From: Methanococcus maripaludis C5
Lineage (GTDB): Archaea > AGJL01 > Methanococci > Methanococcales > Methanococcaceae
Reading direction: 5' to 3'
DNA: 64,000 bases
Assembly (NCBI RefSeq): GCF_000016125.1
Contig: NC_009135.1
Location: 434,001-498,000 of the forward strand
Part shown: in pieces, positions 45,077 through 49,784 of the stretch
How the letters are laid out: every line of letters starts with the position of its first letter
Position numbering within the stretch: position 1 is the first letter of the stretch
Notes under the pieces: model-generated
Seen by the model: the letters and a program-made list of their open reading frames with translations, nothing else
Database searches by the model: none
What the model was told of the DNA's origin: nothing
Program-made: the position numbers and the translations under genes

Positions 45077-45134
45077 AATTAATTAAAAGTTTAAATTACT
45101 CTTATTTTAACGTTAATTAGTTTAGAAGTGAAAA

Positions 45135-45846
45135 AATAGCAGGATCAACTCAAAATGGGATTATTTAGAATTTGAACTCCAACAGGCACATTCTGATTAC
45201 AGATATTATGGTAATAAAATCAAAAACCAAGTAAATATGATGATAGGGGCTTGGGTTGCATCAATTCCAATATTTAGCCTAATTTCAAACTTTGATCTTA
45301 ATGAAGTTCATTTTTGGACAGGAGTATTGTTGGTAGTAGCATTAATTCTTATGGTAAGTCTTATGTTAATAAATGACATAAAAAATCTGCTGAAGATTTA
45401 ATAAATTCATATCTAGCAATTAATACTCTTAAAAAACACATCAATAAACATTATGTGCCGGAGTATACTATAAAAGCCCCAACTATCTCATTAATACTCT
45501 TTTCACAACTTAATCTATAGCATTTATCTTAGCCTGTATATTATGTATCCCAGTAATAGTTATTCATTTAATTAAATTTTGGATAGAACATCTACTTGAA
45601 GATTTACTATTTACAATACTACCAGTTATATTAATACCCACAATATTGTGCTCTTTGAAAAATTACTATGAAAAATACAAAGAAATATTAAAAATTTTTA
45701 AACCTTATGATCCAGAACTTAAATCGGGCATTGATTTTAAGGCATTTCTCGAAAAAATTACGGGTAAAGATGTGATTATTTCATTTTTAAGCATGGTAAT
45801 TTTTTTACTTTCGTTAATGATTTTTAAATTATTGTCCATAATTTGA
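45135..45846 (+). pseudogene. Membrane-protein pseudogene with two frameshifts
   Basis: Three overlapping frames give one continuous protein of about 235 residues with four likely membrane helices. Frame 1 (from 45135) encodes WDYLEFELQQAHSDY, then helices ending LINDIK, and stops at 45399. Coding resumes one frame lower at about 45386 (SAEDLINSYLAINTLKKHIN) after an A6 run, and again at about 45514 (SIAFILACILCIPVIVIH), ending at 45846. Both shifts fit single-base losses. The start seems lost too: GTGAAAAAATAGCAGG would become an ATG with one base restored. It was probably a functional membrane protein until recently. Confidence 0.7.
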
Positions 45847-45954
45847 GATTAAAATAGCCTTATTTTTTAATTTAAAGCGTATTCCCCTCATTAAAAATTC
45901 ATTCAAAATAATTATTCTTCAATTGAATATTAAACTTCTCTTTTACAATTTAAC

Positions 45955-46018
45955 ATTAAATTGGAAATTAAACCTTTAAATTTTATATATAATTTTAAAC
46001 AGATAAATATCCATTCAA
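45955..46018 (+). repeat. Duplicated promoter region, copy A
   Basis: This region matches 47751-47812 along its length (ATTAAA...AAATTAAAYCTTTAAATT...ATATATA...TATCCATT) with few differences. It holds a TATA-like element ending about 45 bases before the first nuclease-like gene. The same region in front of the small winged-helix gene suggests shared control. Confidence 0.6.
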
Positions 46019-46037
46019 TTAAAAAAAGGGGTTTATT

Positions 46038-46604
46038 ATGGTACTTGGCAAAATTAGATCAGCAGTTTCATCAACATTCTCAAAACTTGCAGATGCATTC
46101 AAACCAAAATCAAGATCTGAAAAGATCGAAGAAATTCGAGAAGAAATTAAAAATGACCAAACTTCTTATGAAAAAGGGACCGCGTTCAAACTATGTTGTT
46201 TAGATATGTTCCCTGAAAAAGACTTTGATCTTCTTGAAATGTCACACGATGATCCCAAAGCTTCAAACGGTAGATTCATTAAAAGCGATTTAAAACCCGA
46301 TTTACAATTTAATCATAAAAAAACAGATAGTCCTTTTAGTGTTGAATGTAAATACAGAAGCAATCTTTTTAAAGGTGCTTACAGCTGGGCCAACAACAAA
46401 AAACAAGCTGATAAATATAGAGAATTTGAATTAGAAAGCCAAATTCCCGTATATATCGCAATGGGTTTAGGGGGAACCCCTGAAAAACCGGAACAAATTT
46501 ACTTAATGCCTTTAAAAGAAATACAGTATAATTCACTCTATCCGAGTGTTTTAAACGATTATGAAGTAAAAAACATAGAAGATATTCTTAAAATAATAAA
46601 TTAG
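46038..46604 (+). CDS. PD-(D/E)xK nuclease-like protein
   Basis: A 188-residue protein. After a basic helical N-terminus (residues 1-45) it has a restriction-endonuclease-like core. KPDLQF gives the catalytic Asp at about 88, VECKYRS gives E103-x-K105, and a Q-x3-Y segment (QADKY, 123-127) follows, as in RecB/Cas4-type nucleases. It is paralogous to the C-terminal half of the next protein (KPDLQF, VECKYRS and IPVYIAMGL are shared). No methyltransferase or specificity subunit is nearby. GGGG precedes the ATG. Its role (DNA repair, defence or element control) is unknown. Confidence 0.65.
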   Translation: MVLGKIRSAVSSTFSKLADAFKPKSRSEKIEEIREEIKNDQTSYEKGTAFKLCCLDMFPEKDFDLLEMSHDDPKASNGRFIKSDLKPDLQFNHKKTDSPFSVECKYRSNLFKGAYSWANNKKQADKYREFELESQIPVYIAMGLGGTPEKPEQIYLMPLKEIQYNSLYPSVLNDYEVKNIEDILKIIN

Positions 46605-46623
46605 ATTTATTGGATGGAAAAAC

Positions 46624-47715
46624 ATGATAAAAAAAGATATTACCGAATTTGTAGATATTCCACATCAAAAACTACTAAAAAAGATCTATAACTTTGAAAA
46701 AACAATTCCCCACGATGAACTTTTTAAATCTCAAAAAAATGGTTTTGGATCAACATATGGACTAAGTGATTTAAAAAACTGGGGCATGTTAAAAGAAAAC
46801 GTTAAAAATCAATATGATATAAAGAAAAATGAATATACTATAACTCCACTGGGTAAATACGTTGCATTGCTTTTGAAAAGGATTAATAAAGAAGACTTAA
46901 GCGACGAAGAATTAGAATTTTTAAACGATTATACAATTTTCAATGAATTATTTGAAATTCCAACACTAAAATTTATTTTAAAAACACTTTACCATAACAG
47001 TGAATTTATAAGTTCTAAAGAAATTTCAAACGGTGTTTACAAAAACTTAGGAATTTCCAACTTTGCAACCAATACAGAAATAAAAAAACTTGCAGTAATT
47101 GGTTTTTTAGAATCTTACGTAACAGGTAGTTTCATATTTGCCACACATTCTTACCGGTTAAACGAGCTCGGAAAGAAAGTTTATGAGCATTATAATTCAA
47201 ATCCAGAACCAATAACGCCCCCTGTAAAAAATGAAGAAATTAAAAAAGAAATAAGTGATACAGACCAGTTAGCACATGAAAAAGGAAAAAATTTTGAAAG
47301 TTATGTAATGGATAATTTTTTTCCAAAAGAAAACTTCGATTTACTCCATGTAACGCCTGATGCAGAAACTAATGAAAAAAGGTATGTTGAAAGTTCAAGA
47401 AAGCCAGATTTACAATTTAGGGATAAAAAAACAGGTAAAATATTTTACGTTGAATGTAAATATCGAAGTAGATTATTTAATGAAAAGTATGTATGGGCAA
47501 AAAATACCGAACAGGCGGAAAGATACCGAAATATTGAGTATTTAGAAGAAATTCCGGTATATATCGCAATGGGATTAATGGGAACTTCGGATAATCCTAA
47601 AAAAGTATTTTTAATGCCATTATGTAATATGGAAAATGTTGCAATATTTCTAAGTGTTTTAAAAGATTACGAAATAAAAGAAGCTAAAGATGTATCCAAA
47701 ATACTAAATTCTTAA
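46624..47715 (+). CDS. Winged-helix-fused PD-(D/E)xK nuclease-like protein
   Basis: A 363-residue protein 19 bases after its paralogue. The N-terminal 200 residues look like two winged-helix domains (about 5-90, with ITPLGKYVALLLKRI, and 100-195, with SSKEISNGVYKNLGISNF and HSYRLNELGKKVYEHY). From residue 215 it has the same nuclease core as the preceding protein: D262 in KPDLQF, E277 and K279 in VECKYRS, and Q-x3-Y at 297-301. It probably binds DNA with one half and cuts or recognises it with the other. This domain combination is the most distinctive protein in the accessory pocket. Confidence 0.65.
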   Translation: MIKKDITEFVDIPHQKLLKKIYNFEKTIPHDELFKSQKNGFGSTYGLSDLKNWGMLKENVKNQYDIKKNEYTITPLGKYVALLLKRINKEDLSDEELEFLNDYTIFNELFEIPTLKFILKTLYHNSEFISSKEISNGVYKNLGISNFATNTEIKKLAVIGFLESYVTGSFIFATHSYRLNELGKKVYEHYNSNPEPITPPVKNEEIKKEISDTDQLAHEKGKNFESYVMDNFFPKENFDLLHVTPDAETNEKRYVESSRKPDLQFRDKKTGKIFYVECKYRSRLFNEKYVWAKNTEQAERYRNIEYLEEIPVYIAMGLMGTSDNPKKVFLMPLCNMENVAIFLSVLKDYEIKEAKDVSKILNS

Positions 47716-47750
47716 ATTTTTAATCTTTAAATTACTCTTTTTAAATTTTA

Positions 47751-47812
47751 ATTAAACTCAAAATTAAATCTTTAAATTATATATACGATTTTTATTAAAT
47801 GTATATCCATTA
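47751..47812 (+). repeat. Duplicated promoter region, copy B
   Basis: This is the second copy of the segment at 45955-46018, ending 57 bases before the winged-helix gene at 47870. It includes CTTTAAATTATATATA, the probable BRE-TATA element. The TATCCATT 3' end is also conserved. Confidence 0.6.
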
Positions 47813-47869
47813 ACTTTTATTATTTTGTAATCTTAATTGATTAACAACTATCCAAATAGGGGGAAATAA

Positions 47870-48130
47870 ATGCCTGAACTTGAAATAAGAAAAAATATTT
47901 TAAAATATTTACATGAAAAAGGCAATTATGTAACTGGGGGCGAATTAGCCGATAAAATAAATCTTCAAAAAGATGAATTAAAAGTTCATCTTGATTTTTT
48001 AGAAACGGGAGGCTATTTAAAATTAAACGGTGCAGTCGGCGGAATTTCCCACATTTCAGCAATAACCGAGAAAGGAAAAAAGATGGTTGAAAATAACGAG
48101 TTTAAATTTCAAAAACCATTCTTATCTTAA
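47870..48130 (+). CDS. Small winged-helix DNA-binding protein
   Basis: An 86-residue protein. It has a helix-turn-helix at about residues 20-48 (TGGELADKINLQKDELKVHLDFLE), then a wing (GGYLKLNGAVGGISHISAITEKGKKMVE). GGGGG precedes the ATG at 47870. It is probably a transcription regulator. Its promoter region is a copy of that of the first nuclease gene, so it may autoregulate and control that pair. The promoter link is seen; the regulatory link is inference. Confidence 0.7.
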   Translation: MPELEIRKNILKYLHEKGNYVTGGELADKINLQKDELKVHLDFLETGGYLKLNGAVGGISHISAITEKGKKMVENNEFKFQKPFLS

Positions 48131-48159
48131 ATTACTCATTTTCAAAAAATTGAAGAAAA

Positions 48160-48200
48160 TTTATCTTTTTTAAGAAAATTAAATCAACATTTTTAAATAA
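48160..48200. repeat. Imperfect direct repeat, left copy
   Basis: TTTATCTTTTTTAAGAAAAT and the following 20 bases (TAAATCAACATTTTTAAATA) recur at 48659-48700 with a few changes. The two copies flank the membrane-protein gene at 48258. AT-rich DNA makes chance similarity possible, but the colinear match is about 40 bases. Confidence 0.4.
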
Positions 48201-48257
48201 AATTTATTTAATAATTTGGTTCACGACATATATTGTTTTTATTTGTGGGGAGTTAGC

Positions 48258-48623
48258 ATGAATTTGGTACTTATAATAACATTGGTGGTATTCGCATTTT
48301 CATTTAGAAAAGTATGCAACAATATAATCAATGATTTTTCAGGTTATGAAAATTCTCAAAATAATAAATTTATCGATGTTGTAGAGTCTATCCTGCTCAT
48401 ATCGTCAGTCGTTTTTTATTTTGTATTAGTTGCATTTTTGGGCAAAGGACTTTCAACTTTTGAAGTATTTCAAAGTCAAATTCCTGAAGTTAAGATAGTA
48501 AGTATACTTATTCTTCCACTTATCGCCATGTATTTATTTTCAGTATTTGCAAGTAAGCAGGCTGTAAATTACAGCTTTAAAAAGGAATTAATTAAAAAGA
48601 GAGATGTAAAAAAGGAAATTTAA
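48258..48623 (+). CDS. Small hypothetical membrane protein
   Basis: A 121-residue protein with three hydrophobic segments (about residues 1-18, 40-62 and 75-97) and a lysine-rich C-terminal tail (KKELIKKRDVKKE), which predicts a cytoplasmic tail. GGGGAG precedes the ATG at 48258; the frame itself opens upstream at 48216. I recognise no family. It is flanked by imperfect direct repeats and lies in the accessory pocket. It is not part of the pseudogene family at 45135 so far as I can see. Confidence 0.6.
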   Translation: MNLVLIITLVVFAFSFRKVCNNIINDFSGYENSQNNKFIDVVESILLISSVVFYFVLVAFLGKGLSTFEVFQSQIPEVKIVSILILPLIAMYLFSVFASKQAVNYSFKKELIKKRDVKKEI

Positions 48624-48658
48624 GAAAATTGGGTTTTAAAAATTCAAATGGAGTTTTT

Positions 48659-48700
48659 TTTATCTTTTTTTAAGAAACTTAAATCAGAATTTTAAATTCT
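48659..48700. repeat. Imperfect direct repeat, right copy
   Basis: This is the partner of 48160-48200. It reads TTTATCTTTTTTTAAGAAAC and continues TTAAATCAGAATTTTAAATT. Confidence 0.4.
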
Positions 48701-48713
48701 TTTTTAAATCAAC

Positions 48714-49201
48714 TTAAGGTCTATTTCGAAAAATAAATTTTTGGTGCGGATAATTGAATTCTTCAACAAATTCGTCTTCTAAAAATCCTATTTTTTTATA
48801 GGGTGCTCTTGGAGCCACACCTTTCAAATCGCCTTCACGAAACGTTGTAACCGAAATATCCATATCTTTTGGAAATAAGTCGATCATTTTTTTAACCATT
48901 GCATATCCAATTCCCATTTTGCGGTAATCTGGATGTACTGCCATACATGAAAGGCATTTTGAATAATATGAAAATATCAAGACCCCTACGATATTGCCAT
49001 TGTCGGACTTTGTAAAAAGAGCTGTTTTTCTTTCAATGTTTTTTATAACTGTTTTTTTATAATCTTCCAACTGTTCTGCAGTTTCCAATCCTGGAAAATT
49101 ATCTCTAACTATTTGAATCATTTCTATGCAGGCATATCGTTTAGTTCTGCAAATTGTAATTTAAAATTGGGAGCATTATGTTTCCTTACAAGTAGATCCA
49201 T
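48714..49201 (-). pseudogene. GNAT acetyltransferase with a frameshift near its start
   Basis: The main frame (ATG at 49121) encodes 135 residues with the GNAT acetyl-CoA loop HPDYRKMGIGYAM. It seems short at the N-terminus. Upstream, an ATG at 49201 with GGTG before it opens a second frame, ending FAELNDMPA at a TAG (49124-49126). Joining the two by one added base gives DMPAIEMIQIVRDNFPG, a typical GNAT first helix. So this looks like a full-length acetyltransferase disrupted by a single-base loss. A sequencing error or a shorter functional form from 49121 remain possible. Substrate unknown. Confidence 0.65.
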
Positions 49202-49322
49202 GAAAAAAACACCTTTTAAAACATTGCTGTAAAGTGGCCCATATATTCAATGAATATGTGTAGGATAAAAAGATTTTTATTACTTTTAAATTACTCTTTT
49301 TAATTTTAAAAAAATAATAAAG

Positions 49323-49784
49323 TTACTCTTTTTTAATTTTTTCAACAACTTCTATTCCGTAAATTTGGGTGTCCGGATATTGTCCAAATTCATCTTTTTC
49401 AATTGCCTTTACCATGTCCCAAATCGTTAAAAGTGCAACAGAAACTCCAGTTAAACTTTCCATCTCGATTCCTGTTTTGTATGTAGCTTTTACCCTTGCT
49501 TCTGCTTTTATTTTATCATCAAAAATCTCAAAATTAACTTTTATAGATTCAATCGGAAGTGGGTGGCACATCGGAATGATATTCGAAGTGTTTTTAACCG
49601 CCATAACTCCTGCAACTTGCGCAGTAGTTAAAACATCTCCTTTAATGAGTTCTTTTTTGGTAATTTTTTCAATAGTCGATTTTTTAAGTTTTATAAACCC
49701 AATTGCAGTACAAATTCGTTCAACGTCCTTTTTTTTGGAAACATCGACCATTTTTACGCCATTTTCATCAACATGTGTAAGCAC
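49323..49784 (-). CDS. moaC: Cyclic pyranopterin monophosphate synthase MoaC
   Basis: A 153-residue protein starting [41 protein letters not shown] is the MoaC signature, and [27 protein letters not shown] is the second conserved block with the active-site lysine. It completes pyranopterin formation in molybdenum/tungsten cofactor synthesis, needed for formylmethanofuran and formate dehydrogenases. The start is GTG at 49784 with GGCGAT upstream. No other moa genes are near. It is divergent from the HTH-ACT regulator. Confidence 0.95.

What the first reader, a model, noticed from the sequence alone, without database searches (positions are those of the whole stretch)
46038..47715. Tandem paralogous PD-(D/E)xK nuclease-like proteins, one fused to winged-helix domains
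Both proteins share KPDLQF, VECKYRS, Q-x3-Y and IPVYIAMGL. The second carries two winged-helix domains at its N-terminus. No methylase, helicase or Cas gene accompanies them. Tight spacing suggests one operon. This is the best candidate in the window for an undescribed defence or element-control system.
Basis: partly seen in the sequence, partly recalled or inferred. Interest (0 to 1): 0.62.

Follow-up and report, generated by a model that had tools for sequence, protein, structure and literature searches.

The report
Stranded pair of element-borne DNA nucleases
Two neighbouring genes in a methane-producing archaeon encode related, hitherto unnamed DNA-cutting enzymes that normally ride on integrated plasmids or viruses, probably as a barrier against other incoming DNA, and here sit in a small leftover island inserted between two housekeeping genes.

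Summary
[quoted passage not shown] No Pfam, NCBIfam or PADLOC family explains them. Profile searches found relatives in Methanosarcinales (62/186 genomes), Methanomicrobia, Bacteroidota, one Bacillota record and Riemerella phages.

In Methanococcales the family is patchy (7/41 genomes) and sits mostly in the cargo slot of integrated elements, between a MarR-like regulator and the integrase; that slot also holds OLD/AriA-like, HEPN and methylase genes. The window copy is a 4.2-kb island without recombinase, inserted between tfrB and moaC, which abut in five sister species.

I read it as a stranded cassette of element-borne accessory nucleases, most likely a DNA barrier, possibly membrane-associated. 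A junction-resolving role is the main rival; but each genome tested has its own Hjc, and the family does not match the Hjc profile. The winged-helix claim is plausible but unproven. In Methanosarcina the family sits at a conserved locus, sometimes as an old tandem pair, so 'purely mobile defence' is too strong.

The parts
45090..49301 (.). Inserted island of about 4.2 kb between tfrB-like (ends 45076) and moaC (49323-49784, minus strand)
   Evidence: In L087, L088, L089, L090 and L091 (five sister species) the two flanking genes abut; BLASTN breaks at 45110 and 49298
45090..45103 (+). Boundary motif TTTAAATTACTCTT, left end of the island
   Evidence: Only three occurrences in the window at up to 1 mismatch, expected 0.18
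45159..45833 (+). Decayed membrane-protein gene(s)
   Evidence: 66% DNA identity over 693 columns to L026 10188-10864, where the reading frames are longer
45863..46015 (+). Leader/promoter segment of the nuclease operon
   Evidence: 97.4% identical to the segment in front of the second nuclease of L023 (11845-11997)
46038..46604 (+). P0001: stand-alone PD-(D/E)xK nuclease, 188 aa, N-terminal helix plus nuclease domain (about residues 39-188); D88, E103, K105, Q123; K51 in place of Glu
46624..47247 (+). P0002 N-terminal domain (residues 1-208), putative tandem wHTH
   Evidence: E=2.8e-8 to the C-terminal domain of the L028/L029 nuclease; no HTH profile match
47260..47712 (+). P0002 nuclease domain (residues 213-363); D262, E277, K279, Q297
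47726..47742 (+). Boundary/terminator-like motif TTTAAATTACTCTTTTT after the operon
47745..47869 (+). Second leader segment, repeated before other cargo genes of the genome
47870..48130 (+). P0003: 86-aa Sso10a-like wHTH protein
   Evidence: 47745-48145 is 88% identical to L023 14706-15111, beside that element's integrase; weak HTH/Sso10a matches
48216..48623 (+). Small membrane protein, passenger of the island
   Evidence: absent from the empty sites; no significant family
48714..49121 (-). GNAT acetyltransferase, passenger of the island
   Evidence: PF00583, E=1.9e-8; absent from the empty sites
49285..49301 (+). Boundary motif TTTAAATTACTCTTTTT, right end of the island

Best explanation
Shown: 46038-47715 encodes two paralogues of one unnamed PD-(D/E)xK nuclease family with a predicted Hjc-like fold, in a recombinase-less island inserted between tfrB and moaC. 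In other Methanococcales loci the family mostly occupies the cargo slot of integrated elements (integrase plus 450-aa Rep-like core, MVV/pT26-2-like). Inferred: the window island is a stranded piece of such cargo. The enzymes are metal-dependent DNA endonucleases kept by elements (and some chromosomes) as accessory barriers that cut foreign or competing DNA. P0002's N-terminal domain (and P0003) would supply DNA binding or autoregulation. The N-terminal amphipathic helix, replaced by true transmembrane segments in several lineages, would hold the nuclease at the membrane, where DNA enters.
For: Fold and active site. Cargo slot: of the 12 fetched relative regions, 7 carry a tyrosine integrase and an eighth (L032) a serine recombinase; the regulator family occurs in 9 of these 12. 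Element cargo beside the family includes OLD/AriA-like (1e-23), type II methylase (1e-122) and HEPN (7e-7) genes, and an SpbK/TIR gene (2.5e-39) lies in the L026 region. Convergent position in Riemerella phages: nuclease between a repressor-like gene and the integrase. Patchy distribution, 7/41 genomes, with pseudogenes. Empty site in five sister species. An element with the same core but no nuclease in its fetched 12 kb (L097), so it behaves as cargo. Membrane theme: 20 of 39 short-N members have a significantly amphipathic N-terminus (p<=0.05; about 2 expected, though members are related), and TM segments occur in several other lineages.
Against: No activity was tested. In Methanosarcina the gene sits at a conserved chromosomal locus beside a PHP-domain gene, unlike a typical mobile defence gene. 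P0001 lacks the helix-1 Glu. There is no partner ATPase or methylase in the window island. PADLOC gives no confident match (best E=0.0014). The survey of elements is biased, since most were found through the nuclease itself. The amphipathic-helix test is not significant for P0001 alone (p=0.17).
Confidence: 0.5

Rival explanations
1. Junction-resolving or recombination nuclease: an Hjc-like enzyme that elements use to process recombination or replication intermediates, not to attack foreign DNA.
For: Top PDB fold matches are all Hjc (A. fulgidus 2wcw E=1.6e-5, TM by target about 0.6-0.7; S. tokodaii ST1444), then RecU. Shared KGxxFE ... D ... ECK layout with host Hjc. In several elements it lies close to the integrase. 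Vertical presence in Methanosarcina.
Against: All 21 Methanococcales genomes tested already carry an Hjc (PF01870), and the family is not hit by that profile. Profile-profile match to host Hjc is weak (probability 6.7%). The Hjc Ser-Gly-Ser loop before the Asp is absent and there is a C-terminal extension. One element with the same core lacks it in the region read (L097). Membrane anchors make no obvious sense for a resolvase.
Confidence: 0.27
2. Obligate heterodimer: P0001 and P0002 act as two halves of one nuclease, each cutting one strand, with P0002 supplying DNA recognition.
For: Pairs recur: P0001/P0002 in the window; a solo copy plus a TM-bearing, N-terminally extended copy in L023; four Methanosarcina genomes carry tandem pairs, each one clade-A and one clade-B copy in the order B then A.
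Against: Single copies are common in both orders (L024, L025, L028, L034, L148, L152). P0001's partner differs between the window and L023. Pairs in Methanosarcina are largely inherited vertically.
Confidence: 0.1
3. Decaying passenger genes without present function, or DNA-binding regulators with a relic nuclease fold.
For: The island contains a decayed neighbour (45159-45833); P0001 lost the helix-1 Glu; two relatives (L026, L032) have Lys for the catalytic Glu; pseudogenes are frequent.
Against: Both window ORFs are full length with D, E, K and Q intact; leader and terminator-like motif are preserved.
Confidence: 0.13

Closest known systems
Archaeal Holliday-junction resolvase Hjc (PF01870)
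   Same: Best structural match in the PDB; alpha-beta-beta-beta-alpha-beta core; KGxxFE, D, ECK order
   Different: Not recognised by the Hjc profile; lacks the Ser-Gly-Ser loop; has an extra C-terminal region and N-terminal helix, TM or HTH-like additions; patchy and multi-copy, whereas Hjc is single copy in 20 of the 21 genomes tested (two matches in one)
NERD / Mrr-type PD-(D/E)xK nucleases
   Same: PD-(D/E)xK core; architectures with TM segments (comparison to NERD from general knowledge, not tested)
   Different: No NERD match; only a sub-threshold Mrr_cat match in one member
arCOG07102, 'PD-(D/E)XK superfamily nuclease, virus/plasmid associated' (Makarova 2014, PMC4158269)
   Same: Same superfamily label and element association, in the same list as virus/plasmid-associated MarR regulators; possibly the same family
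   Different: Identity with this family could not be checked here; no function or structure is described in the passages found
Cargo of pT26-2-family integrated plasmids, including MVV1 of M. voltae (Badel 2019, PMC6972569)
   Same: Integrated elements of Methanococcus with a type II integrase; likely carriers of this family
   Different: The paper's main text does not mention this nuclease; assignment of my loci to pT26-2 is inferred

Membership tests
PD-(D/E)xK nuclease superfamily | alpha-beta-beta-beta-alpha-beta core fold | tested here: met
   AF2 pLDDT 88, secondary structure and Foldseek matches to Hjc and RecU
PD-(D/E)xK nuclease superfamily | D ... (D/E)xK catalytic residues conserved | tested here: met
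   D88, E103, K105 invariant in 20 members; Q123 also invariant
PD-(D/E)xK nuclease superfamily | metal-dependent DNA cleavage | not testable with these tools
   needs a nuclease assay
Hjc (PF01870) | match to the Hjc profile over its cut-off | tested here: not met
   No PF01870 match for P0001 or P0002; host Hjc is a separate gene at G000:C1:1285502
Hjc (PF01870) | Hjc sequence landmarks (RSAGSxGVD loop before the catalytic Asp) | tested here: not met
   Family has TH..N.RYVESSLxPD instead; hhalign probability 6.7%
Hjc (PF01870) | four-way-junction cleavage | not testable with these tools
   needs an assay
Cas4, NERD or Mrr | profile match | tested here: not met
   No Pfam or NCBIfam hit over cut-off for P0001 or P0002; one relative shows a sub-threshold Mrr_cat match, E=0.048
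Known anti-phage defence system (PADLOC) | confident match of the nuclease to a PADLOC model | tested here: not met
   Best match SAVED_LON E=0.0014 to P0001; none to P0002
Restriction-modification system | cognate methylase in the same locus | tested here: not met
   No methylase in the island; a type II methylase in the same element as one relative (L025)
Winged-helix fusion (P0002) | HTH profile match or confident wHTH model | tested here: inconclusive
   No Pfam HTH match; pLDDT mostly under 50; homologous to L028/L029 C-terminus

The most novel reading that the evidence does not exclude
A new family of membrane-tethered, often paired PD-(D/E)xK nucleases that cut DNA as it enters the cell, spread among archaeal integrated elements as exchangeable leader-gene-terminator cassettes bounded by TTTAAATTACTCTTTTT, with one cassette cluster inserted at the 3' end of moaC.
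Probability: 0.17. Interest if true: 0.72.

Novelty: new member of a known kind. Interest (0 to 1): 0.45.

Why it matters
The family has no named model in Pfam, NCBIfam, PADLOC or PHROGs that matches it, yet it occurs in a third of the Methanosarcinales genomes tested and in Bacteroidota. If it is a DNA barrier it would add a candidate defence nuclease for methanogens. The clean empty site, the small size and the genetic tractability of Methanococcus make both the function and the cassette exchange directly testable.

Tried and rejected
Sequence search against the PDB (P0001, two profiles): nothing credible. IMG/VR scans with P0001 and with profile A2: no relatives. Genome-contig scan with P0002 alone: none; it worked only with a profile. 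PHROGs: only weak hits (RusA-like 0.012). FlgM and Apis_Csd Pfam hits: judged chance matches below cut-off. Recent tandem duplication as origin of the pair: rejected, since P0001 is closer to the L025, L023 and L024 copies than to P0002. Window locus as an intact element: rejected, no recombinase of the element's types in the window. Archaeal integrons as explanation of the cassette pattern: considered; no attC-like site or integron integrase was tested for, and literature hits did not concern Methanococcus. P0002 model for fold search: not done, N-terminal confidence too low.

Full report
Observation. The two ORFs at 46038-46604 and 46624-47715 exist as described, 19 bp apart on the same strand. 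They share 40% identity over 206 columns (E=4e-48), and all four shared motifs are present. Neither protein has a credible match in Pfam, NCBIfam or PADLOC; P0001 and the family profiles have none among PDB sequences.

Family. A profile from the Methanococcales copies, a Methanomethylovorans plasmid and Riemerella phages found 23 relatives in genome contigs: Methanosarcina, Methanomethylovorans, Methanomicrobia, many Bacteroidota and one Bacillota record. A 20-row alignment has invariant G47, P87, D88, F100, V102, E103, K105, R107 and Q123, the PD-(D/E)xK layout. P0001 has Lys51 where at least 90% have Glu; two relatives (L026, L032) have Lys in place of the catalytic Glu, so some members may be inactive.

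Fold. AlphaFold2 on P0001 gives pLDDT 88 and pTM 0.77. Foldseek against the PDB puts archaeal Hjc first (E=1.6e-5; TM by target 0.6-0.7), then RecU. Yet all 21 Methanococcales genomes tested carry a separate PF01870 Hjc, and profile comparison to these is weak. So it has the Hjc fold but is not an Hjc by sequence. For P0002 the nuclease domain is confident, the N-terminal region mostly is not.

The N-terminal domain of P0002. No HTH profile matches. It is homologous to the C-terminal domain of the nuclease in G001 and G006 (E=2.8e-8; alignment), so the same two domains are joined in opposite orders. Winged helices remain plausible, not shown.

Context in Methanococcales. The family occurs in 7 of 41 genomes, with up to five copies. 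I read 12 regions. Clustering of their proteins shows a recurring element: an integrase, a small protein beside it and a 450-aa Rep-like protein in seven of the 12 regions, and also in L097, which has no nuclease in the 12 kb read. A MarR-like regulator precedes the cargo slot. The nuclease is one of several kinds of cargo, beside OLD/AriA-like, HEPN and methylase genes; an SpbK/TIR gene lies in the L026 region, where no integrase was seen. Badel et al. (PMC6972569) describe pT26-2-family plasmids in Methanococcus, including MVV1; I infer that these elements belong there. Makarova et al. (PMC4158269) list arCOG07102 as a virus/plasmid-associated PD-(D/E)XK nuclease; it may be this family.

The window locus is an island. 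In five sister species the flanking genes tfrB and moaC abut. In the window 4.2 kb lie between them: a decayed membrane-protein gene, P0001-P0002, P0003, a small membrane protein and a GNAT. No recombinase of the elements' types is in the window. The 153-bp leader of the nuclease operon is 97% identical to the leader of the second nuclease in L023, and the P0003 segment is 88% identical to a segment beside L023's integrase. The motif TTTAAATTACTCTT occurs three times in the window, at both island ends and after the operon (expected 0.18). In G000 the 17-base form has 11 sites at up to one mismatch, against 1-5 in the six sister species of the genus; the reversed control has 1 in G000. The exact copies in G002 and G004 lie in the fetched element regions L030 and L025. 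TERM-then-LEADER pairs recur in front of other cargo. Whether this reflects cassette exchange by recombination or shared regulatory sequence is open.

Wider context. In the order of Methanosarcina 62 of 186 genomes have the family. In the nine regions read there it is a chromosomal gene divergent from a PHP-domain gene, usually with a peptide-transporter operon beyond it. Four genomes carry tandem pairs, each one member of two old clades, in fixed order. This counts against a purely mobile role. In Riemerella phages the gene sits just upstream of the integrase. In Bacteroidota some members are fused to a TM segment and a further domain.

Membrane theme. Of 39 members with a short N-terminal extension, 20 have a hydrophobic moment above shuffled sequence at p<=0.05 (about 2 expected; members are not independent), and TM segments appear in Flavobacteriaceae, Methanomethylovorans, a Chitinophagales record, G179 and the L023/L030 copies. 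P0001 itself is not significant (p=0.17).

Conclusion. Anatomy and origin are well supported. The function (DNA barrier at or near the membrane) is the best reading of context and fold, at about 0.5. A junction-processing role is the main rival.

Noticed in passing
45090, 47726, 49285; G000:C1 919225, 1106039, 1237252, 1237668 (exact or one-mismatch copies): Motif TTTAAATTACTCTTTTT at both ends of the island and downstream of cargo genes elsewhere; G000 has 11 sites against 1-5 in sister species of the genus.
   Followed up: partly
45863-46015, 47745-47869; G000:C1 211719, 1236427, 1238274, 1603801, 1729399: Roughly 100-150-bp leader repeat with a TATA-like core, recurring before unrelated cargo genes (nucleases, wHTH, ECF transporter component); some copies hold the palindrome ATGGATATCCAT.
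   Followed up: partly
L033 6867-7391 and 17855-18330: One intact and one broken nuclease copy bracket an element in G013 and share a near-identical 3' half; gene conversion or an attachment site.
   Followed up: no
L053 7893-11466; L034 1862-4651; L158 8037-8978: PHP-domain genes lie near the nuclease in three unrelated lineages; those of L053 and L034 match the PADLOC model Ppl (2e-22, 3e-36).
   Followed up: partly
L032 9500-10051 and 8621-9160: Nuclease relative with Lys in place of the catalytic Glu, 340 bp from a serine recombinase.
   Followed up: no
L092 (G000:C1 1100001-1112000): Apparent defence island (SIR2-like, toll/SEFIR-like, HsdM-like genes by eye) that also holds one exact TTTAAATTACTCTTTTT site.
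   Followed up: no
L023 9731-11185, L025 6154-7512, L097 5853-7235: Homologous 450-480-aa cargo proteins in the slot at or near the regulator; the two tested (L023, L025) have no Pfam or PADLOC match.
   Followed up: partly
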